Under the pieces are notes generated by a model. The model saw nothing but the letters and a program-made list of their open reading frames with translations. It did not search any database and had not been told where the DNA came from. A program made the position numbers and the translations under genes. Below, piece after piece: positions 54,214-63,835 of a stretch of 64,000 bases of DNA (positions within the stretch are counted from its first letter, which is position 1; every line of letters starts with the position of its first letter). The DNA is taken from positions 434,001-498,000 of the forward strand of contig NZ_JACHIG010000004.1 of NCBI RefSeq assembly GCF_014203095.1. Direction: 5' to 3'. The DNA is from Prosthecobacter vanneervenii (GTDB lineage Bacteria; Verrucomicrobiota; Verrucomicrobiia; Verrucomicrobiales; Verrucomicrobiaceae).

Positions 54214-56481
54214 TTACTCCTTTTCGAAGAGCAGTCGCAGGCTGTTCAGGCACACCACCACCGTGCTGCCCTCGTGCGTCAGCACCCCCAGGGTCAGCGG
54301 CACGATCCCAAAAAGGGAAGCCACCGCCATCACGATGACGCTGCCGAGCGAGATGAACAAATTCTGCTGGATGATCTGCCGCGCCCGGTGGCTGATCCGG
54401 CGGGCGGCGAGCAGCTTTTCAATCTTGTCCTTCATCAGCACCACGTCGCTCTGCTCCAGCGCGGCGTCGCTGCCTCGGGCGCCCATGGCCACGGAGACGT
54501 GGGCGGCGGCCAGGCTGGGGGCGTCGTTCACACCATCTCCCACCATGGCCACCTTGTGCCCGGCCTGGGTCAGCTCGCGGATGGCGGCCACCTTGTCCTC
54601 CGGGTGCAGGCCGGCCCGCACTTCGGAGATGCCCAGCTTTTCCCCCACTTCGGCGGCGGCGGCGCGGCGGTCGCCGGTCAGCATGATGGTGCGCACGCCG
54701 TCAGCGGCCAGCCGCTCCAGCACGCCGCGGCTGCCGGCCCGGATCTCATCCTTGAGCAGTACCCGCCCCACGATCTGCTCGTGCAGCACCCAGACCTCAC
54801 TGAAACCCAGGGGTGCGTCTGGCACCGCCGCCAGCACTTCGCCCAGCGGACTGTCTTTGACGAGCTCCCGCCGCCCCACGTAGCTGAGGCCGTGCTCGGT
54901 GCGCCCCCGCAGTCCCTGGCCGGTGATGGATTGAAACTCGGCCAGTTTTTCCATCTCGATGCCCTGGGCCTTGGCATATTGGGTGATGGCGCGGGCGATA
55001 GGGTGGTTGGAATTGGCCTCCAGGCTCGCGGCGATGCGCAGCACCTCCTGCTCGCGTCCGGCAGGGAAGCTCTCGATCCGACTCACCTTCAACTCGCCCT
55101 CGGTCAAGGTACCGGTCTTGTCCATGGCGATGACGTCCACCTCCGCGAGCTTTTCGATGGCGGCACCGCCGCGGAAGAGCACACCGCGCCGTGCGCCCCA
55201 GGCGATGGCCGCCAGGATGGCGGAGGGGATGGAGAGCACCAGGGCACAGGGGCTCATGACCACCAGCAGTGTCATGGCACGATAGAAGGAGGACTTGGAC
55301 GCCGCCGTGTTTTCAAAAGGCGGGATGCCCAGGGCCAGCCACCAGACGAAGAACATGGCTGCCACCACGCCCAGAGTGAGGATGGTATAGCTGGTGCCAA
55401 AGCGATCCGTGAAGCGCTGGCTCGGCGCACGCAGATGCTGCGCGGTCTGGATGAGGTTGATGATCTTGGCCAGCGCGCTCTGCGTGGCCGGACGGTCCAC
55501 CCGCACATGCACCAGTCCCCATTGGTTCAAGGTGCCGCCATAGATCGTGGCCCCTGCCTCCTTGGGAATGGGCACCGCCTCACCGGTCAGGGTGGACTCA
55601 TCCGCCGCCGTCGAGCCCGAGATCACCGTGCCGTCCACGGCAAAGAGTTCATCCGGCTTCACCACGATCACCTCGCCGATCTGCAGCCCGTGCACATCGC
55701 GGTCAGCGGTCGAGCCGTCCGGCTGCAGCACATGCGCAAACTTGGGTGCCGCCTTGGTCAGTGCATTGATCTCCCGATGTGTGCGGAACATCACAAAATG
55801 CTCCAGCGCGCCGGAGGTGGAGAAAAGGAAGAGCAGCAGCGCTCCCTCCTCCCAGGCGCCGATGGCCACCGCCCCCAGGGCCACGGCCAGCATGAGGAAA
55901 TGCACGTCCAGGCGTCGCTCACGCAGGTTTTCCCAGGTGTCCTTGGCCGCATCCCATCCGCCGGAAATCAGAGAGATGGCGAAGAGGCCCTTCGGCAGCC
56001 AGTGCGAGGTGGAAAAGAAGCGCTCAGTGATGTAGCCCGCCGCCAGAGTCACGGCGCAAAGACCCGCCTGCATGGCCAGCGTGCGCCACTCGTCTTCGCT
56101 TTCCTGTTCCATCTCGTCCGGCTCCGGCCACGCAAAGTCACGCCAGTGCCAGAGCTTGGGTGCGGTGGGGCATGAGGGCTTGGCCAGCACAAAAGCGCCG
56201 TCTTTTTCCTCCACATCCAGCATGCCGTGGTTGGGTGTCACGTGGCCGTTTTGCTTGAGCCATCGGGCATCCACCGCGCGCAGGATCTCAGAAAGCTTTG
56301 CCTGAAGCAGCTCGCCATCCACCCGACCGAGGGTCGCCATCTCCACACGCTTGGCATCAGGATTCAGCCGGATGGATTCGACGGCGGGTTCTTCCAGCAG
56401 GAAATCCGCCAGCGCGGACATCCAGGAGGATGCATCAGGAGGGGCTGCGTTGGAGTTTGGCATGCGCGTTGGCATGAGCAT
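54214..56481 (-). CDS. P1B-type heavy-metal ATPase with SPC metal site
   Basis: A 755-residue cation pump. The N-terminal 120 residues look like a degenerate HMA fold with no CxxC. The transport core has the actuator TGE at 299-301, the membrane metal motif SPC at 410-412, phosphorylation Asp454 in DKTGT, the HP motif at 493-494 and GDGVNDAP late. The last TM carries THEGST. SPC with HEGG/S/T is the P1B-4 pattern, associated with Co2+, Zn2+, Ni2+ or Fe2+ efflux rather than Cu+. ATG codons at 56475 and 56463 are alternative starts. It is divergent from plsC with only 48 bp between. Confidence 0.92.
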   Translation of the reverse strand: MLMPTRMPNSNAAPPDASSWMSALADFLLEEPAVESIRLNPDAKRVEMATLGRVDGELLQAKLSEILRAVDARWLKQNGHVTPNHGMLDVEEKDGAFVLAKPSCPTAPKLWHWRDFAWPEPDEMEQESEDEWRTLAMQAGLCAVTLAAGYITERFFSTSHWLPKGLFAISLISGGWDAAKDTWENLRERRLDVHFLMLAVALGAVAIGAWEEGALLLFLFSTSGALEHFVMFRTHREINALTKAAPKFAHVLQPDGSTADRDVHGLQIGEVIVVKPDELFAVDGTVISGSTAADESTLTGEAVPIPKEAGATIYGGTLNQWGLVHVRVDRPATQSALAKIINLIQTAQHLRAPSQRFTDRFGTSYTILTLGVVAAMFFVWWLALGIPPFENTAASKSSFYRAMTLLVVMSPCALVLSIPSAILAAIAWGARRGVLFRGGAAIEKLAEVDVIAMDKTGTLTEGELKVSRIESFPAGREQEVLRIAASLEANSNHPIARAITQYAKAQGIEMEKLAEFQSITGQGLRGRTEHGLSYVGRRELVKDSPLGEVLAAVPDAPLGFSEVWVLHEQIVGRVLLKDEIRAGSRGVLERLAADGVRTIMLTGDRRAAAAEVGEKLGISEVRAGLHPEDKVAAIRELTQAGHKVAMVGDGVNDAPSLAAAHVSVAMGARGSDAALEQSDVVLMKDKIEKLLAARRISHRARQIIQQNLFISLGSVIVMAVASLFGIVPLTLGVLTHEGSTVVVCLNSLRLLFEKE

Positions 56482-56529
56482 TACGAACAAGCAAGGCGCG
56501 TGACAACTTGATCTTCTTCACACATCTTG

Positions 56530-57135
56530 ATGCTCATGATTCGCAGTCTCATCGCTGGGTCCTTGCGCGTGTTTTCAGGTTCCGTGGCCCGCTGGCAGGG
56601 CTGCGCACCTGAGCTGGCGCAGCGCGTGTATTTTGCCAATCACACCAGCAATCTCGACGGCCCCGTCCTCTGGGCCTCGCTGCCGCCACCGGTCCGGGCG
56701 GTGACACGCCTGATCGGTGCTCGGGACTACTGGTCCGTGGGCCGCATGCGTCCCTTCCTGGCCTGCCATGTTTTCAATGCGGTGCTCATTGAGCGCAAGA
56801 AGCCCACGCCCGATGCCAATCCTCTCGTCGAAATGGTCAACGCTCTCGGAGATCGCCACTCGCTGATTCTCTTTCCCGAAGGCGGCCGCCACTCCGGCGA
56901 TGAGCCGCAGCCCTTCAAGCCCGGCCTCTATCATCTGGCCAAAAAGCGTCCGGATGTGCAGCTCGTTCCCGTGTGGATGGAGAACCTCAACCGCATCCTG
57001 CCCAAGGGAGAAATCCTGCCCGTGCCCGTGCTTGGCAGCGTGACCTTTGGCGAGCCGATCCGCTTGCAGGATGACGAACCCAAAACCGACTTTCTCGTCC
57101 GCTCCCGTGAGGCCGTGCTGAAGCTCCGGCAATGA
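56530..57135 (+). CDS. PlsC-like 1-acyl-glycerol-3-phosphate acyltransferase
   Basis: A 201-residue lysophospholipid acyltransferase homologue. The catalytic block NHTSNLD (H-x4-D) is near residues 37-43, the glycerophosphate-binding EGGRHS is near 117-122, and a following VPVWM matches block IV. A hydrophobic N-terminus would anchor it to the membrane. It is short for the family but has all four blocks. It would make phosphatidic acid or act on another acyl acceptor. An ATG two codons downstream, at 56536, is an alternative start. Confidence 0.86.
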   Translation: MLMIRSLIAGSLRVFSGSVARWQGCAPELAQRVYFANHTSNLDGPVLWASLPPPVRAVTRLIGARDYWSVGRMRPFLACHVFNAVLIERKKPTPDANPLVEMVNALGDRHSLILFPEGGRHSGDEPQPFKPGLYHLAKKRPDVQLVPVWMENLNRILPKGEILPVPVLGSVTFGEPIRLQDDEPKTDFLVRSREAVLKLRQ

Positions 57136-57199: not shown

Positions 57200-58192
57200 T
57201 CAATGCCTTCTGCTGCGCATGGCCATCAGTACCGCCAGGCTGATACCCGCTGCTGCCAGAGTCCACAGCACCCAAGGTTTCAGCGCCGTGTGCTGGCTCG
57301 GAATGACCGTTGGCGTTTTTTGTACAGCCACCACCGCCTCAGGGGCTTTCGGCGGCAGTACACCAGCGACAGGCCAGGGGCGCGGCGGCGGCATGGGATG
57401 GCCGGTCTCATAGGTCCATTCACGATAGGGCTTGGAGGCATCTGACTTCCACCATGACTGCAGGGTATCGATGGCAGAGCTGGTAAGAGTCAGGCTTCTG
57501 GGGAGTTGCACCGGCGAGGCATCTCCCAGTGCCTTGACCATCGCATACGCGGCCCCATTCAAATTGCTGCTAGGGGGGGCTCGGCTGCTCTCGATCATGT
57601 GCAAACTGATTGCCTCGTCAGGATTGCGTCTGTCGTCCAGGAACCGCCCGATCTGCTGGATGGCCTCCATGCTGCCGAGCAGACCCAGTTTGCGTAATGC
57701 TCCCTCTCGATAGTTCCAGTACCCCACTTCTTGGGACATCATCTCCAGGCGGTCTCCAATCGCCTTGGCATGTCCGGGGATTGCAGCGAGCTTGGGACGC
57801 ACGTACTCGGCGATTCTTTTGTTCAGTTCGTCACACTTGGCGGAAGCCTCTTTTCGGTTCGGATACAGCCGACTCATGTCGCCATAACCAATGCTTCGTG
57901 CGGCTGCTTCGGTGAAAATATACCACAGAGCTTCCGCATCTTTTTGGGTGGCGGCGGTGTCCACACCTGCATAATCCCCACGAATCAGTGCACTGATGAT
58001 GGGCCTCACTCGTCTGTCCAATTTGGCTTGCCTCTGGTCACTGACTGCGTCGATCTCACGTTCGCGTTGGAAAATGCGTTCGATTTTCTCGGCATTGGAA
58101 GGATCCGGTATGGCTCTGGCGTGGATCAATGACAAAGTCAGAAACCCGCAGATGGCGATGGTGGAAAGAGTGGATGTTTTCATCAGTTTCAT
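57200..58192 (-). CDS. Exported/anchored helical-repeat protein, third gene of coupled operon
   Basis: A 330-residue protein with a signal peptide at about 1-27 and a C-terminal TM helix (ALKPWVLWTLAAAGISLAVL) followed by basic residues, so it is probably anchored with its body outside the cytoplasm. The body is alpha-helical with HEAT-like repeats (REGALRKLGLLGSMEAIQQI) but matches no family I know. The ATG at 58192 overlaps the stop of the previous gene in an ATGA, which fixes the start. A proline-rich segment lies before the TM helix. Confidence 0.75.
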   Translation of the reverse strand: MKLMKTSTLSTIAICGFLTLSLIHARAIPDPSNAEKIERIFQREREIDAVSDQRQAKLDRRVRPIISALIRGDYAGVDTAATQKDAEALWYIFTEAAARSIGYGDMSRLYPNRKEASAKCDELNKRIAEYVRPKLAAIPGHAKAIGDRLEMMSQEVGYWNYREGALRKLGLLGSMEAIQQIGRFLDDRRNPDEAISLHMIESSRAPPSSNLNGAAYAMVKALGDASPVQLPRSLTLTSSAIDTLQSWWKSDASKPYREWTYETGHPMPPPRPWPVAGVLPPKAPEAVVAVQKTPTVIPSQHTALKPWVLWTLAAAGISLAVLMAMRSRRH

Positions 58193-60384
58193 CGATTGTT
58201 GGGGCCTAATTTCTTGTTGAATCTGCTCCATTCGAATTTGATGAGGGTTTTGGGGCCCTGTTCACGTTTGGGGCCTTCGAGGCTGGTCATGAGGCGGCTT
58301 TCATTATCGCTATTGGGCATATGGTTGTTGTCTGATGGCACGGTCGAATGCCCAACTTTGGCGACATAATGCATGATTTCATGGGCAATCGCCCACATAT
58401 GTGGCGGCTGTTCAGAGCCAGCTGGTCTGGGGTAATCCCACACAAAGAGCACACCGTTGTTGACCGGTTTGGCCTTGCCGGCATGACCAAGCACCGGCCG
58501 CCAATTTTGCAAGTAGCTAAAGCCACGTTGTTTCGGGTCTTGTGGTGGGTAATAACTAAGGCTAACCATGCCATTTTTCTCGTTACCCATGTCGGTTCCG
58601 GGAGCGGCAAAGAAATAAACATTCACATCAGCAGCTTCATCAGGTGGCGAGGCAAGCTGCATGGCTGCCTCCTCGGTAGATCCTACTGGATTCAAATTAC
58701 CGTCCAGGCCAAACAGCAGCTCCAGCCGCCCGTTTCCGGCCATCACATCACTCCCTAGCCCCAAGCCCGTGTCCCAGTCCACTCCCACAGTGGGCAGGAC
58801 GGTGACATTGGTGACCACATTGGCTTGGGCAAAAATGGAGTCGAGGTAATCTTGTAGATCTTCTGCGTCCGGGGTGTCCACCGGCTCTGCCAGCACTGAT
58901 CCTGTGGCAGACAGCAGTCTGATCGGATGCACCGTGACTTTGAGTTCCACCGTGTCATACACCACAATCTTCATCAGGGGTTTATTGGTGGCCATGTTGG
59001 CATCTCCGGTGTCGCCGTAGGCGATACCGGCGGTGATCACGCCATCCTCGTCCTCCAGATCGCTTCCAGCGTTGAAGGCAATGATGGAGACAGCGTTGAA
59101 AGGGTTGTCTGAGGTATATACAAGTCCGGAGGAGGTGGAAACACCCAGCCCGTCCACCGAGATGTTATTTCCGCTGACACTGTAAACGATACGGTGCGGA
59201 CTACTGGTTGACCCATTAAAGTTTAGGCTTCGAGGCTGGCCTACGGGCAGCATCAGCCAGTGGTCTGTCACACCAGGCAACGCTTCCACCTTTGGCGGAT
59301 CCCCTGGATTTGGTCCCGGCACCTCGGAGGTGCCAAGGATGCTGCTTTGGAGATCCATGACGACATCGCCGGTCACAGCAGGATATACGAATGCTTCGTG
59401 CACGGTGGCTTCATCTGCCATGCTAGGTGTTAGTGATAAAAAATCTGAGACTTCTCGGTGTGCCTTGGTGTTAAACTGATGAAGAATCACATTGCCATAG
59501 CTGCAAGAGTGAGGGTCGTTCTTGATCGTAGCATCGAATTTCAGATAGTTTTTTGACACGCACCATGGCTGCTCCTGGCCACGTATGGCGGTCCCCAGAG
59601 TGACATCGAGGTGATAGAGGCTGCCGTAGCCGACCTGAGCGCTCTCTGTTTGGAAAGTGTATGCAAAGGCATAAGCCCAGCCCTTGTTGACCAGAGAACT
59701 GAGATCACCCTCAGGGAAATAAAGCTTGCCGAGCTTTTGTGAAATTTTGGATGAAAACCCTGAATAGTCATCACGGCCGGAGTTTGGAACTGAATCCAGC
59801 CAGCTGACATAGGACTGGCTGGGAGGCTGATACCACTGATTGGTAATGGATTTAAAGTAGGCGTGCAGCGTCATGGGCAGTTCGACCCCTCCTTTTTCCG
59901 CGACTCCGGTCAGATCATTGGAAGCGGCGTCCAAGGGGTCGGAGTCATGTGCGAGTTCCTCACCATCGCCGATGCCATCTCCGTCTGAATCGGCTGCAAA
60001 AGGGTTCAGCCCCAGCGCCAGCTCTTCATCATTCGAAGATCCGTCTCCGTCAAAGTCTGCATTCCCGGCAGAAAGTCCGCCCGTGCTGGTGTCTGTGTAG
60101 CGCAGCCGCCAGAACTGGCGGGAGTCGGTGCAGGCGAAGTTCAGCCCGTCCACGGCATTGCTGCCGCTGTGCACCACGGGCACGTAGCTCCAATGGACTA
60201 GATCGTATGACTGCTGCACGAAGTAGGTGCGGCCCGCACGGCCCCACCAGCTGAGCACCTGCGCGCCGGTGGTGGCATCTGCCGTAACGCGCACGCCTTC
60301 GTATGGATCGGTGGCGATTTGCGCACTGCATGGCATGGTGCCGAGCGGCAGCAGGAGGGCCGCAGCAAAAAGAGCAGGCCTCAT
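58189..60384 (-). CDS. Exported HExxH putative metalloprotease with TSP3-like Ca repeats
   Basis: A 731-residue protein, signal peptide about 1-21. Residues about 35-100 form a beta module with VQQSYDLVHW and FWRLRY, like the C-terminal module of the GDSL protein at 16131-17411. Residues about 110-150 are thrombospondin type 3-like Ca-binding repeats (DFDGDGSSNDEE, DSDGDGIGDGEE). A large beta region follows. The C-terminal HEIMHYVAKVGH at 668-679 gives a zinc-binding HExxH plus a third His, arguing for a metalloprotease, though the spacing is not the metzincin HExxHxxGxxH. It overlaps both neighbours by ATGA. Confidence 0.78.
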   Translation of the reverse strand: MRPALFAAALLLPLGTMPCSAQIATDPYEGVRVTADATTGAQVLSWWGRAGRTYFVQQSYDLVHWSYVPVVHSGSNAVDGLNFACTDSRQFWRLRYTDTSTGGLSAGNADFDGDGSSNDEELALGLNPFAADSDGDGIGDGEELAHDSDPLDAASNDLTGVAEKGGVELPMTLHAYFKSITNQWYQPPSQSYVSWLDSVPNSGRDDYSGFSSKISQKLGKLYFPEGDLSSLVNKGWAYAFAYTFQTESAQVGYGSLYHLDVTLGTAIRGQEQPWCVSKNYLKFDATIKNDPHSCSYGNVILHQFNTKAHREVSDFLSLTPSMADEATVHEAFVYPAVTGDVVMDLQSSILGTSEVPGPNPGDPPKVEALPGVTDHWLMLPVGQPRSLNFNGSTSSPHRIVYSVSGNNISVDGLGVSTSSGLVYTSDNPFNAVSIIAFNAGSDLEDEDGVITAGIAYGDTGDANMATNKPLMKIVVYDTVELKVTVHPIRLLSATGSVLAEPVDTPDAEDLQDYLDSIFAQANVVTNVTVLPTVGVDWDTGLGLGSDVMAGNGRLELLFGLDGNLNPVGSTEEAAMQLASPPDEAADVNVYFFAAPGTDMGNEKNGMVSLSYYPPQDPKQRGFSYLQNWRPVLGHAGKAKPVNNGVLFVWDYPRPAGSEQPPHMWAIAHEIMHYVAKVGHSTVPSDNNHMPNSDNESRLMTSLEGPKREQGPKTLIKFEWSRFNKKLGPNNR

Positions 60385-61163
60385 GGCTGGCTGGCTCCTT
60401 TCTGCCGCTGAGCGTTTTCCTGGATGGCGGCACGCTGCGCGGGCTGCAGCGGCCAGAAGTGGATGATGCTGTGCCGAGGCGGAGGTGGCGGGGCATTGCG
60501 CGCTGCCAGCTCCCGTGCAGCCTGATCTGTCGCACGCTGCGCCTGCTGCTGCATTAGCTCCGCCTTGTGGGCGTCGTAGTAGGCCAGCAGCAGTTCCATG
60601 ACATCCAGCGCGGATTGATCTGCCGGGCCTATGGCGGTAGTGTCGGCCACCAGGGCAAAGGCGGTGCCGCCATCTGCTGGCAGCAGTTGCGCCGCTTGCG
60701 CTTCGGCTGGCGTCAGATTTTGCTCATCGGGTCCAGCGCTCAGAATGAGGACGTAATCGGTTTGTTCTGTTTTCACCTGGCCCAGGCCTGCGAGGGCGCG
60801 GAAATCGACATTGGTCACGGCATGCAGGCGCTGGGAGGTGCCGCAGGTCCAGTGCAGCACGGTGAAGCCATCGGCATGCACGGAGGCGGAGATGCTCAGC
60901 ATCTGGGTTTCCTGCACCGGCACCTGGCTCAGGACCGCCTCCTGAGCCGCCGTCAGTGGCACAGCAAAAGCTGCTGCTGGTGGCTTCGCCTGAGGAGAGA
61001 CCACCGGAGGCAGCACCTGAAGGAAGGTGACGGAGCTACCGTCCTTCTGCTGCACGGTGGATTCGGAGAGCACTTGATAGACTGGCGCGGCAGATACTGC
61101 ATCTTGTGCGGTAATGCTTCCTGACGCGAGCAGGGGCATGAATAGGGCTAGGGCACGTTTCAT
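60381..61163 (-). CDS. Exported protein of unknown function, first gene of coupled operon
   Basis: A 260-residue protein with a signal peptide at about 1-19. The rest is a mixed beta/alpha domain (VTFLQVLPPVV, FTVLHWTCGTSQRLHAV) and a C-terminal helical, Ala/Gln-rich tail ending in proline and basic residues. I recognise no family. The stop overlaps the start of the metalloprotease gene in an ATGA, so it is translated in step with it; a chaperone, inhibitor or pro-domain role is one possibility. A GCATTA-A-TAATGC palindrome lies 10 to 22 bp upstream of its ATG. Confidence 0.72.
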   Translation of the reverse strand: MKRALALFMPLLASGSITAQDAVSAAPVYQVLSESTVQQKDGSSVTFLQVLPPVVSPQAKPPAAAFAVPLTAAQEAVLSQVPVQETQMLSISASVHADGFTVLHWTCGTSQRLHAVTNVDFRALAGLGQVKTEQTDYVLILSAGPDEQNLTPAEAQAAQLLPADGGTAFALVADTTAIGPADQSALDVMELLLAYYDAHKAELMQQQAQRATDQAARELAARNAPPPPPRHSIIHFWPLQPAQRAAIQENAQRQKGASQP

Positions 61164-61593: not shown

Positions 61594-63000
61594 TCACTTC
61601 GTGACAGGTCGCAGCTTTTCCGCCAGGCGCGCGCGCAGTTCTTTCAGCACGGCGGCATGCTGCGGCTCATTCGCCAGATTCGTGTACTCCTGCGGATCAC
61701 TCTCGTGATCGTAGAGCTCGATACCGTTTTTCCCTTCGTCCCATTCCGTGCAGCGCCAGCGCGCGGTGCGGATGCTGCGGCCCCAGAATTCAGCATCCTT
61801 GCCGCGACGTGCTTGCGTGAATGCCTCCTCATGAATCGCCGCTGTCGGATCGCGCAGCAGTGGGTTCAGGGACAATCCCTGCAGATGCTTGGGCGCGGGC
61901 ACGCCGCAGAGATCGCAAAGCGTGGGATACACATCCAGCAGTTCGATGAGGCCCTGGCTCTGCTGCCCGGCGGCTTTCATGCCGGGTGTGTGCAGGATGA
62001 AGGGCACGCGCGCACATTCCTCAAACAGGCTGCGTTTGTGCCACAGGCCGTGCTCGCCGAGATGCCAGCCGTGGTCGCTGGTGAAGAGGATGATCGTGTT
62101 GTCATCCAGCCCCATTTGTTTGATCGCCTCCAGCACCCGCCCTGCCTGCGCGTCCACATAGCTCACGCACGCTAGGTAGGCCCGGATGGCGGCGCGGCGC
62201 TGCTCCGGCGTGCAGCTCAGTGCATAGCCTGGCACCGCCCCATTGCGCGCAGGGGCTGGGATGTCCGCCTCGTCATCGGCTGGGGCCTCGGGTAGCGAGA
62301 TGCTTTCGAGAGGATACAGATCGAAATACTTCGCCGGCGCCACCAGTGGCAGATGCGGGCGGTGAAAGCCGACCGCGAGAAAGAAGGGCTTCGTTTTGTC
62401 GCGGCGCTCCAGCCATTCGATGGCCGTTTTGGCAAAGTTGCCATCCACCAGTTGGTCATCATCTCCCGGTATTTCCTGCCAGCCCAGGCCCTGCTTTTTG
62501 CCGGCCTTCACCTTAACAAGGCTCTCGCGTTTGGGCGGGTAGGGGAGTTCACTTTTGAAAGGTGTTCCAAAGTCCCAGGCTTGGGGGTCGTCCATGCTTT
62601 CCAGTCCGCTGGGCACGCCTAGATGGAAAATCTTCCCGCATCGCGCCGTGGCGTAGCCGTTGTTGCGGAAATGATGCGGCAGCGTCAGCACCTCCGGAAG
62701 GTTCGTGTACAGATTGTCTTCGTTGTTCGTCACCCGCGTCGTGTTCGGCCGCAGCCCGCTCATCATCGAGGAGCGCGAGGGATTGCAGTGCGGAAACTGG
62801 CAGTAGGCGCGGTGAAACACTACGCTCCGCTTCGCCAGCGCATCGAGGTTCGGCGTCTTGGCCTGAGGGTGGCCGTAGCAGCTCAGGGTCGCCGCCAGAT
62901 CATCCGCCATGAGCAGGACGACATTGGGGCGCGTATCAGCAGCCCGGGCGGAAATCAAAGTGCAGCCCAGCAGCAGGAGAATGACACGGAGTTGGTTCAT
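61594..63000 (-). CDS. Exported Cys-type sulfatase, iduronate-2-sulfatase-like
   Basis: A 468-residue protein, signal peptide about 1-20. The N-terminal metal site LMADDLAAT and the formylglycine signature CNPSR (Cys about residue 72, to be converted by a formylglycine-generating enzyme) are intact. SDHGWHLGEHGLW carries further Ca2+ and sulfate ligands. The overall pattern is iduronate-2-sulfatase-like, that is, family S1 acting on sulfated glycans. No maturase gene lies in this window. The ATG at 63000 gives the signal peptide. The DUF1080 gene lies 65 bp upstream on the same strand, suggesting cotranscription. Confidence 0.93.
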   Translation of the reverse strand: MNQLRVILLLLGCTLISARAADTRPNVVLLMADDLAATLSCYGHPQAKTPNLDALAKRSVVFHRAYCQFPHCNPSRSSMMSGLRPNTTRVTNNEDNLYTNLPEVLTLPHHFRNNGYATARCGKIFHLGVPSGLESMDDPQAWDFGTPFKSELPYPPKRESLVKVKAGKKQGLGWQEIPGDDDQLVDGNFAKTAIEWLERRDKTKPFFLAVGFHRPHLPLVAPAKYFDLYPLESISLPEAPADDEADIPAPARNGAVPGYALSCTPEQRRAAIRAYLACVSYVDAQAGRVLEAIKQMGLDDNTIILFTSDHGWHLGEHGLWHKRSLFEECARVPFILHTPGMKAAGQQSQGLIELLDVYPTLCDLCGVPAPKHLQGLSLNPLLRDPTAAIHEEAFTQARRGKDAEFWGRSIRTARWRCTEWDEGKNGIELYDHESDPQEYTNLANEPQHAAVLKELRARLAEKLRPVTK

Positions 63001-63065
63001 GGCCTGCTGAAACAGCGGCATGCAGTCGCATCTATCCGTCAGTTGCAATGGGGGAACGCGGGTGG

Positions 63066-63704
63066 CTACTTCAGCTCCTTGATCCGCACATTGCGATACC
63101 ACACCCGCAGCGCCTCATCCTGAAAAGCGATCTGCCCCACATTCGGACGGTCTGCCATTTTGATGTCGTCGAGGCTGGTGTCGATCACCTGCTCGCCATT
63201 AAACACCACCTTCACGCTGCGGCCTTTGACCGTGATGGTGTAGCGGTTCCACTCTCCGGCAGGCTTCACCATGTTTTTGGAGGGGCCAATGCCGTGCACG
63301 ATCCCACCGCAGTCATGATGTCCCGGCTTTTCCAGCCCATAGGTATCGAGGATCTGCACCTCGAATCCAGTCTTCACCGGCTCCTTCATGTCTCCCACGC
63401 GCATGAAGACGCCGCTGTTGCCCTTGGCATTGATCTTGAATTCCAGATCCAGCACAAAGTCGCCGTATTGCTTCTCCGTGGCGATGTAGGCGTCATAGCG
63501 CTGCCAGCCCTTCTCCCCCTCACGCGGGTGCAGGGAGAGGCTGCCATCCGGCTCCACCAGCCAGTTGCCGGTGGTTTTCCAGCCGGTGAGGTCCTTGCCA
63601 TTGAAGAGAGGGACAAACCCAGGAGCATCCGCGGCGGGGTGGAGATCCTCGGCAAAGGCGGAGATGGCTAGGCCGAGGATCAGGAGAAGGGAGGCAAGTT
63701 TCAT
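63066..63704 (-). CDS. Exported DUF1080 protein linked to the sulfatase
   Basis: A 212-residue protein, signal peptide about 1-18. Clear DUF1080 jelly roll: FVPLFNGKDLTGWKTT, then DFVLDLEFKI, GNSGVFMRVGDM, FEVQILDTYG, EWNRYTITVKGRSVKVVFNG and IAFQDEALRVWYRNVRI. It is closer to the canonical family than the protein at 12687-13445. It would bind or hydrolyse a (3-keto) disaccharide in the periplasm. It is the first gene of a pair with the sulfatase and diverges from ahcY across 131 bp. Confidence 0.92.
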   Translation of the reverse strand: MKLASLLLILGLAISAFAEDLHPAADAPGFVPLFNGKDLTGWKTTGNWLVEPDGSLSLHPREGEKGWQRYDAYIATEKQYGDFVLDLEFKINAKGNSGVFMRVGDMKEPVKTGFEVQILDTYGLEKPGHHDCGGIVHGIGPSKNMVKPAGEWNRYTITVKGRSVKVVFNGEQVIDTSLDDIKMADRPNVGQIAFQDEALRVWYRNVRIKELK

Positions 63705-63739
63705 GGTGGTGAGCTTCAAACGGGCCGACAAATCCCCGT

Positions 63740-63791
63740 TTGACATCCGGGCATCCATTTGGAACATATCATCGTATCCTGATACGTTGAT
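63740..63791 (+). promoter_or_regulatory. Promoter-proximal palindrome upstream of ahcY
   Basis: A perfect -35 box TTGACA is at 63740-63745. Just downstream, ATCATCGTATC (63768-63778) and GATACGTTGAT (63781-63791) form an 11-base inverted repeat with one mismatch and a two-base centre, placed where a -10 region would be. This arrangement suggests a repressor operator. The SahR-type regulators of the methionine cycle are a candidate class, but the assignment is inference. Confidence 0.55.
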
Positions 63792-63835
63792 TTGTTCCTT
63801 TTTACCCAAACCTGAACCCACGCCCCACCCACCTC

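What the first reader, a model, noticed from the sequence alone, without database searches (positions are those of the whole stretch)
57200..61163. Three-gene ATGA-coupled operon of exported unknown proteins with an HExxH enzyme
Both junctions are exact ATGA overlaps (60384-60381 and 58192-58189), so the three proteins are likely made in fixed ratio. All have signal peptides. One is a large Ca-repeat protein with a zinc-binding HEIMHYVAKVGH, one ends in a TM anchor, and the first matches no family I know. This looks like a self-contained secreted or surface protease system and is the best candidate here for an undescribed system.
Basis: partly seen in the sequence, partly recalled or inferred. 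Interest (0 to 1): 0.65.

Follow-up and report, generated by a model that had tools for sequence, protein, structure and literature searches.

The report
Protease allele of bacterial toxin system
Three linked genes for exported proteins look like one version of a mix-and-match toxin system that many Verrucomicrobiota carry: a constant front part, here fitted with a metal-dependent protease, and a membrane-anchored partner that probably protects the producer.

Summary
In detail: three minus-strand genes (g1 61163-60381, g2 60384-58189, g3 58192-57200), two exact ATGA overlaps, signal peptides, TSP3 repeats and HEIMHYVAKVGH in g2, a C-terminal TM helix in g3. Order is conserved; HExxH and third His are invariant in 7 of 7 aligned sequences, window included.

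But it is not a self-contained protease system. g1 plus the N-terminal domain of g2 form a constant module, found in 17 of 68 family and 20 of 387 phylum genomes. g2N follows g1 in 54 of 67 loci; 12 of the other 13 are cut or masked. Behind it the effector changes: 25 BLAST-distinct ends in 37 loci. Relatives carry RHS repeats, Ntox50, and Ntox10 followed by Imm27. HExxH lies near the end of 14 of 39 effectors. The next gene is exported and TM-anchored in 14 of 25 non-RHS and 0 of 9 RHS cases.

Best reading: an allele of a Sec-exported polymorphic toxin system with a metzincin-like effector (g2) and membrane-anchored immunity protein (g3); g1 is the constant delivery partner. Toxicity, immunity and delivery are inferred.

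The parts
60381..61163 (-). g1: 260-aa exported protein, constant partner of the module; no Pfam/NCBIfam family above cut-off
   Evidence: ORF; homologues
60447..60470 (-). conserved C-terminal motif of g1 (SIIHFWPL; typical form T-[VI]-I-x-F-W-P-[VIL])
   Evidence: a loose pattern for it is found in 23 of 24 rows of A5; the 24th is cut by its contig end
60381..60384 (-). ATGA stop/start overlap g1/g2
   Evidence: four-base overlap in 41 of 54 g1/g2N pairs
58189..60384 (-). g2: 731-aa exported effector
60070..60312 (-). conserved N-terminal domain of g2 (WWG..GRTYF.Q.S.DL..W.Y.PV...RQFWRLRYTD)
   Evidence: alignment A6, 21 rows
59908..60069 (-). TSP3 Ca-binding-type repeats of g2
   Evidence: Pfam PF18884 E 2.6e-7
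58192..59058 (-). C-terminal metzincin-like domain of g2 (variable effector part)
   Evidence: A3; matrixin/reprolysin matches in two homologues; profile against PDB ranks MMP-1 first
58348..58383 (-). zinc-binding motif HEIMHYVAKVGH (H668-H679)
   Evidence: H, E, H and third H invariant in A1 and A3
58288..58311 (-). SDNESRLM: Met-turn-like motif after the zinc site
   Evidence: S692, N694, R697, L698, M699 invariant
58189..58192 (-). ATGA stop/start overlap g2/g3
   Evidence: same in L010, L018, L019, L022
57200..58192 (-). g3: 330-aa exported partner, candidate immunity protein
   Evidence: orphan and remnant-linked copies
57218..57274 (-). C-terminal TM helix of g3 followed by a basic tail
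   Evidence: hydropathy scan residues 307-325

Best explanation
The operon is one allele of a multi-copy polymorphic effector (toxin-immunity) system of Verrucomicrobiota. Shown by sequence: g1 and the N-terminal domain of g2 are a constant pair; the g2 C-terminus is exchangeable and here ends in a metzincin-like zinc-protease motif; a partner gene follows the effector directly. Inferred: all three proteins leave by Sec. g1 and g2N with its Ca-binding TSP3 stalk then carry the effector to or through the cell surface, plausibly through a secretin (the own genome has 9 secretin matches and no VipB or RHS match). The protease cleaves envelope or surface proteins of neighbouring cells. g3, held in the inner membrane with its main domain in the periplasm, blocks the protease in the producer.
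For: Constant front: g2N follows g1 in 54 of 67 loci, 12 of the other 13 being cut or masked. Of 18 N-domain hits with E < 1e-15 outside the own genome (which scored at most two candidates per genome), 17 sit next to a g1 hit. g1 and g2N identities correlate over 20 loci (Mantel r 0.61, 0 of 5000 permutations).

Variable back: among pairs whose g2 is complete, L097/L098 (59% over the N-terminus), L110/L111 (48%) and L110/L116 (47%), each pair from one genome, and L099/L101 (88% over 80 residues, two genomes) have C-termini at shuffle level. There are 25 single-linkage BLAST groups of effector ends in 37 loci.

Toxin nature: RHS repeats or core over cut-off in 15 of the 47 loci whose effectors were scanned; Ntox50 at the end of L141 (2.4e-6, over cut-off); Ntox10 (1.7e-47) then Imm27 (1.1e-17) directly downstream in L130.

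Protease end: HExxH within the last 200 aa of 14 of 39 effectors, shuffle expectation 0.23.

g3 as immunity: similarity of partners follows similarity of effectors (7 of 9 partner pairs, permutation mean 0.21, 0 of 10000; after dropping four close relatives 2 of 4, 19 of 10000). Partners of non-RHS effectors score as signal peptide in 20, C-terminal TM in 16 and both in 14 of 25; partners of RHS effectors in 3, 1 and 0 of 9. g3 homologues stand alone (L071, L073) or behind protease remnants (L072, L074).
Against: No activity data. No Pfam or NCBIfam toxin or immunity family covers the window's own g2 or g3. 9 of 16 effector-similar pairs have partners with no detectable similarity, and the association rests on few pairs once close relatives are removed. 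Exported TM-anchored partners would also suit an anchor or chaperone. L109, L135 and L146 have no RHS match but partners without signal peptide. L129 has no next gene in reach, and the nearest called genes in L126 and L143 are 250-266 nt away. The window's zinc motif has one residue more than the classic metzincin spacing and no Gly at the usual place. L131 and L134, also behind g1-g2N, have partners with PEP-CTERM-like tails; L131, the one scanned, has an Ig-like domain, as has L140; these look like surface proteins rather than toxins. The own genome has one g1 copy only. Structure models were poor.
Confidence: 0.65

Rival explanations
1. A secreted, Ca-stabilised nutrient-scavenging or matrix-degrading metalloprotease, with g3 as its membrane-held chaperone or anchor and g1 as an accessory export factor. 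The g1-g2N module would be a general export tag for exoproteins.
For: Several effectors have enzyme-like ends (zinc motifs in 14 of 39); TSP3 repeats recur in many other proteins of the phylum; sulfatase and 3-keto-disaccharide hydrolase genes lie next door; L131 and L140 carry the module on Ig-domain proteins.
Against: The same module carries RHS proteins, Ntox10 with Imm27, and Ntox50; C-termini differ beyond detection between paralogues of one genome; g3 copies occur without any effector.
Confidence: 0.2
2. A surface self-recognition, adhesion or processing system: g2 matures a surface partner and g3 is its membrane receptor or substrate; no killing is involved.
For: g3 has an ectodomain and TM anchor; near-identical protease ends (L010 and L019, 88.8%) go with g3 proteins of only 45.9% identity, as expected for a fast-changing receptor as well as for an immunity protein.
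Against: Named toxin and immunity domains in the corresponding slots of one relative, L130; partners without signal peptide plus TM anchor in the same slot when the effector carries RHS.
Confidence: 0.1
3. Chance neighbours in a minus-strand run, with no functional unit.
For: Four-base overlaps are common in bacteria (general knowledge).
Against: Order and overlaps recur in relatives.
Confidence: 0.02

Closest known systems
Polymorphic toxin systems, Sec/T2SS-exported class (Zhang et al. 2012, PMC3482391; passages seen)
   Same: Constant N-terminal leader, exchangeable C-terminal toxin, downstream immunity gene, RHS variants; metallopeptidase toxins and a few secreted or TM immunity proteins are described there. 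A transglutaminase-like domain lies near the start of the RHS proteins of L100 and L129; 'inactive transglutaminase' is one of that paper's Sec leaders.
   Different: The Sec leaders in the table passage seen are MAFB-N, MicroscillaN, APD1, APD2 and inactive transglutaminase. The g1 + g2N + TSP3 pair is not among them, and 'thrombospondin', 'TSP3' and 'metzincin' have 0 occurrences in the text held. Its peptidase-toxin rows seen list no immunity protein for Tox-HopH1 and Tox-MPTase1-5.
RHS toxins (PF05593, TIGR03696)
   Same: Several g1-g2N loci in other Verrucomicrobiota carry them, either fused to g2N or as the next gene.
   Different: The window's g2 has no RHS repeats; the own genome has no RHS_repeat match.
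Metzincin peptidases (matrixin M10, reprolysin M12, serralysin, pappalysin)
   Same: HExxH, a third His and a following Met-turn-like LM; two homologues match Peptidase_M10 (best 2.3e-4) and Reprolysin_5 (best 3.2e-4); the 51 PDB profile hits at E up to 1 are nearly all matrix metalloproteinases.
   Different: The best PDB profile hit has only E 0.005. L101, the one metzincin-like member shown with cut-offs, is below them; the window protein itself matches no peptidase family; its third His lies one residue further out.

Membership tests
Polymorphic toxin system | constant N-terminal leader with variable C-terminal domain | tested here: met
Polymorphic toxin system | known toxin domains at the C-terminus in family members | tested here: met
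   Ntox10 in L130, Ntox50 in L141; two of 47 loci scanned, and not the window's own g2
Polymorphic toxin system | immunity gene directly downstream | tested here: inconclusive
   Imm27 in L130; no Pfam family over cut-off in the 18 other partners scanned nor in the window's g3, for which the case is position, association and topology
Polymorphic toxin system | several divergent copies per genome | tested here: met
   seven matches in G329, six in G115; four in G067; but only one in the own genome
Polymorphic toxin system | toxicity and neutralisation | not testable with these tools
   needs expression and competition assays
RHS toxin | RHS/YD repeats | tested here: not met
   window g2 has only TSP3; the own genome has no RHS match
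Metzincin peptidase | HExxHxxGxxH/D zinc motif (recalled) | tested here: inconclusive
   L022 HEIGHALGLDH and L101 HELGHCLGLDH fit; window HEIMHYVAKVGH has the third His one residue further and no Gly
Metzincin peptidase | Met-turn after the zinc site | tested here: met
   RLM invariant in 7 of 7 rows of A3; sequence motif only
Metzincin peptidase | family profile above curated cut-off | tested here: not met
   window: none; L101 below cut-off for Reprolysin_5, M10 and DUF4953 and for serralysin NF035945
Metzincin peptidase | metzincin fold | tested here: inconclusive
   two-sequence AF2 model, pLDDT 42.9, pTM 0.49; best Foldseek hit PAPP-A, E 0.11

The most novel reading that the evidence does not exclude
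g1 plus the g2 N-terminal domain is an undescribed Sec-dependent two-protein delivery platform of Verrucomicrobiota. It works without T6SS, loads unrelated cargo (metzincins, lysozyme-like enzymes, RHS-Ntox toxins), either fused or as the next gene, and its metzincin toxins are paired with a new class of inner-membrane-anchored periplasmic immunity proteins.
Probability: 0.4. Interest if true: 0.8.

Novelty: new variant of a known kind. Interest (0 to 1): 0.62.

Why it matters
g1 and g2N give a marker that finds candidate toxin loci without knowing the toxin, and a list of new effector ends and partners to test in a phylum whose antagonism systems could be probed this way. Periplasm-facing immunity proteins against metzincin toxins would also be new protease inhibitors. 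On print: six searches of the open-access library listed no paper that, by title, abstract or the passages I saw, describes this module; subscription papers are mostly not held there, and Zhang et al. 2012 does list Verrucomicrobia among carriers of other polymorphic toxins.

Tried and rejected
g1 as inhibitor of the protease: rejected, because g1 is constant across effector ends that BLAST cannot relate. A plasmid-borne unit: no match of g1 or g2 in the plasmid collection. Viral carriage: no relative of the protease domain confirmed in viral contigs. Influenza haemagglutinin matches (E 0.02 or worse) taken as chance. T6SS delivery in this organism: no VipB match in the own genome. Structure prediction gave low confidence for g2C and g1, so no fold is claimed. 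The first genome-contig scan with one protein found nothing; the second, with A1, found only L056, the same contig as G035. The whole-length A1 search was swamped by TSP3 repeats and was used only for its strong N-domain hits. In one search the effectors of L143 and L157 were assigned wrongly; one search repeats the test with corrected assignments. One search drops L130, L138, L102 and L140, any locus whose effector or partner is cut by an end, and any partner more than 60 nt away. One search leaves out L131, L134, L138, L102 and L140 by name, and its tallies use only partners within 20 nt; it scored a wrong downstream ORF for L130, which lies outside that limit, so the Imm27 gene is not in the tally. 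In one search, the g2 of L108, L113, L132 and L139 is cut by an end, so their 'last 250 residues' are not true C-termini; I do not count those pairs as evidence on C-termini.
Full report
What is there. On the minus strand g1 (61163-60381, 260 aa), g2 (60384-58189, 731 aa) and g3 (58192-57200, 330 aa) follow each other with two exact ATGA overlaps. All three start with signal peptides (by eye). Pfam recognises only two TSP3_bac stretches in g2; g1 and g3 match nothing above cut-off in Pfam or NCBIfam. g2 carries HEIMHYVAKVGH at 668-679 and SDNESRLM at 692-699; g3 ends with a TM helix (307-325) and a basic tail.

Close relatives. A search of 68 family genomes with the g2 body found it in 5, own genome included, all in one genus. 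g1-g2-g3 is whole in L022. In L023 a transposase-like ORF (by eye) lies within g2. G026 has five partial or whole places with contig breaks inside g2, G051 one; G056 keeps only a frame-broken end of g2 running in frame into g3. The zinc residues, the third His and the RLM turn are invariant in 7 of 7 rows, window included. Other members have near-classic metzincin motifs (HEIGHALGLDH, HELGHSLGNLDH); two members match Peptidase_M10 (best 2.3e-4) and Reprolysin_5 (best 3.2e-4), while the window protein matches neither. The profile's best PDB matches are matrix metalloproteinases (E 0.005). So the domain is a divergent metzincin-like protease; the fold is not proved, because the two-sequence AF2 model is poor and its best Foldseek hit, the metzincin PAPP-A, has E 0.11.

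The three genes have different distributions. g3 is found in 8 of 68 family genomes, g1 in 17 of 68 and in four of 11 genera, and with an enlarged alignment g1 is in 20 of 387 phylum genomes, 13 of 197 genera. The protease domain reaches E 1e-5 in 2 of 387, one being the own genome and the other, G329, a partial match. In G329 (L076) a 1037-aa protein with that domain and HEIGH is followed by a g3-like gene, with no g1 or g2N match in the stretch fetched. So g3 goes with the protease end.

Constant front. I fetched the g1 loci and tested each for g2N. It follows in 54 of 67 loci (the window is counted through L025), 41 of them with a four-base overlap. Of the 13 without it, eight stop at or within 400 nt of a contig end (L104, L117, L122, L123, L142, L144, L151, L155), four are masked (L105, L106, L119, L121), and one, L156, has 10.7 kb and no g2N. 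In reverse, of 18 N-domain hits with E < 1e-15 outside the own genome (at most two candidates scored per genome), 17 lie beside a g1 hit; L158 (G415) does not. g1 ends in an [TS]-[VI]-[IV]-x-F-W-P-like motif, found by a loose pattern in 23 of 24 rows; the 24th is cut. g1 and g2N identity matrices correlate (r 0.61, 0 of 5000 permutations, 20 loci of the family).

Variable back. Paralogues of one genome with complete g2 keep the front and differ at the back: L097/L098 are 59% identical at the N-terminus, L110/L111 48%, L110/L116 47%, each with C-termini at shuffle level; L099/L101, from two genomes, are 88% identical over 80 residues and alignable to about residue 400-470, with C-termini at shuffle level. 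L108/L112 (71% at the N-terminus) align only over their first 234-250 residues and L113/L116 (92%) over the first 676-678, but L108 and L113 are cut, so their ends are unknown. Against the pattern, L128/L150 keep a weak C-terminal similarity (score 64, shuffle maximum 54). BLAST groups the last 200 residues of 37 effectors into 25 single-linkage groups. The effector is either fused to g2N or encoded by the next gene.

Toxin evidence. Over 47 loci whose effectors were scanned, some only in their last 500-800 residues, RHS repeats (14) or the RHS core alone (L141) pass cut-off in 15. Two have named toxin ends: Ntox50 in L141 (2.4e-6) and Ntox10 in L130 (1.7e-47). In L130 the next gene is Imm27 (1.1e-17). 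HExxH lies in the last 200 residues of 14 of 39 effectors against 0.23 expected by shuffling; 12 of the 14 have a following LM or IM by eye. L110 and L149 share a C-terminus that looks lysozyme-like by eye only; Pfam does not name it.

Partners. Among 25 non-RHS effectors with a partner within 20 nt, 20 partners score as signal peptide, 16 as C-terminal TM, 14 as both; among 9 RHS effectors the numbers are 3, 1 and 0 (the script misses evident signal peptides in L010 and L150 and over-calls others, such as the TM of L136). L109, L135 and L146 have no RHS match and partners without signal peptide. Of 19 partners of relatives scanned by Pfam, only the Imm27 of L130 is named over cut-off. Similar effectors have similar partners more often than by permutation (7 of 9 partner pairs, mean 0.21, 0 of 10000; without four close relatives 2 of 4, 19 of 10000), but 9 of 16 effector-similar pairs have dissimilar partners. 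g3 homologues stand alone in L071 and L073, and behind only the tail of a protease in L072 (at a contig end) and L074. L010 and L019 have protease ends 88.8% identical but g3 proteins 45.9% identical.

Mechanism. Most likely (0.65) the window holds one allele of a Sec-exported polymorphic toxin system. Shown: constant front, exchangeable back, zinc motif, partner position and topology. Inferred: g1 and g2N deliver, g2C cuts envelope proteins of rivals, g3 protects. The own genome has 9 secretin matches, no VipB and no RHS, which fits secretin-type export but does not prove it.

Known context. Zhang et al. 2012 (PMC3482391, passages only) describe polymorphic toxins, Sec leaders, metallopeptidase toxins and the rare secreted or TM immunity proteins. 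The g1-g2N pair is not among the leaders in the table passage I saw. PMC12057145 (passages) reports large proteins with RHS and TSP3 regions in one PVC lineage; the passages seen do not mention this module. Absence from print is claimed only for the searches, judged by listing, title, abstract and those passages.

Noticed in passing
window 61594-63821 (-): Sulfatase (PF00884, 6.7e-49) and 3-keto-disaccharide hydrolase (PF06439, 2.2e-47) genes lie upstream of the operon on the same strand.
   Followed up: no
window 54214-56490 (-) and 56527-57135 (+): P-type (E1-E2) ATPase and an acyltransferase gene flank the operon downstream.
   Followed up: no
L023:5463-6869: A transposase-like ORF (judged by eye) interrupts g2 in G035, between its N-terminal piece and the rest.
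   Followed up: partly
L024:6267-7598 (-): The end of a broken g2 reads in frame into g3, a protease-partner fusion frame in G056.
   Followed up: partly
L131 and L134: g1-g2N followed by partners ending in PEP-CTERM-like tails (motif recalled); L131's g2 has an Ig-like domain. Looks like surface anchoring rather than a toxin.
   Followed up: no
L109:6078-7337: Two adjacent, similar-looking partner genes without signal peptide (209 and 204 aa) behind an effector with a histidine-rich nuclease-like end; Pfam finds nothing in the effector or the first partner.
   Followed up: partly
G026 contigs C14, C15, C29, C42 (L018-L021): Contigs break within g2 at the same place, as expected when several near-identical copies of the module defeat assembly.
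   Followed up: partly
L158:1-2829 (-): The g2N-type domain occurs about six times in one protein without g1 (G415).
   Followed up: no
L074, just upstream of its g3: The tail of another protein with a TM helix and basic end precedes the g3 remnant locus, perhaps a small array of partner genes.
   Followed up: no
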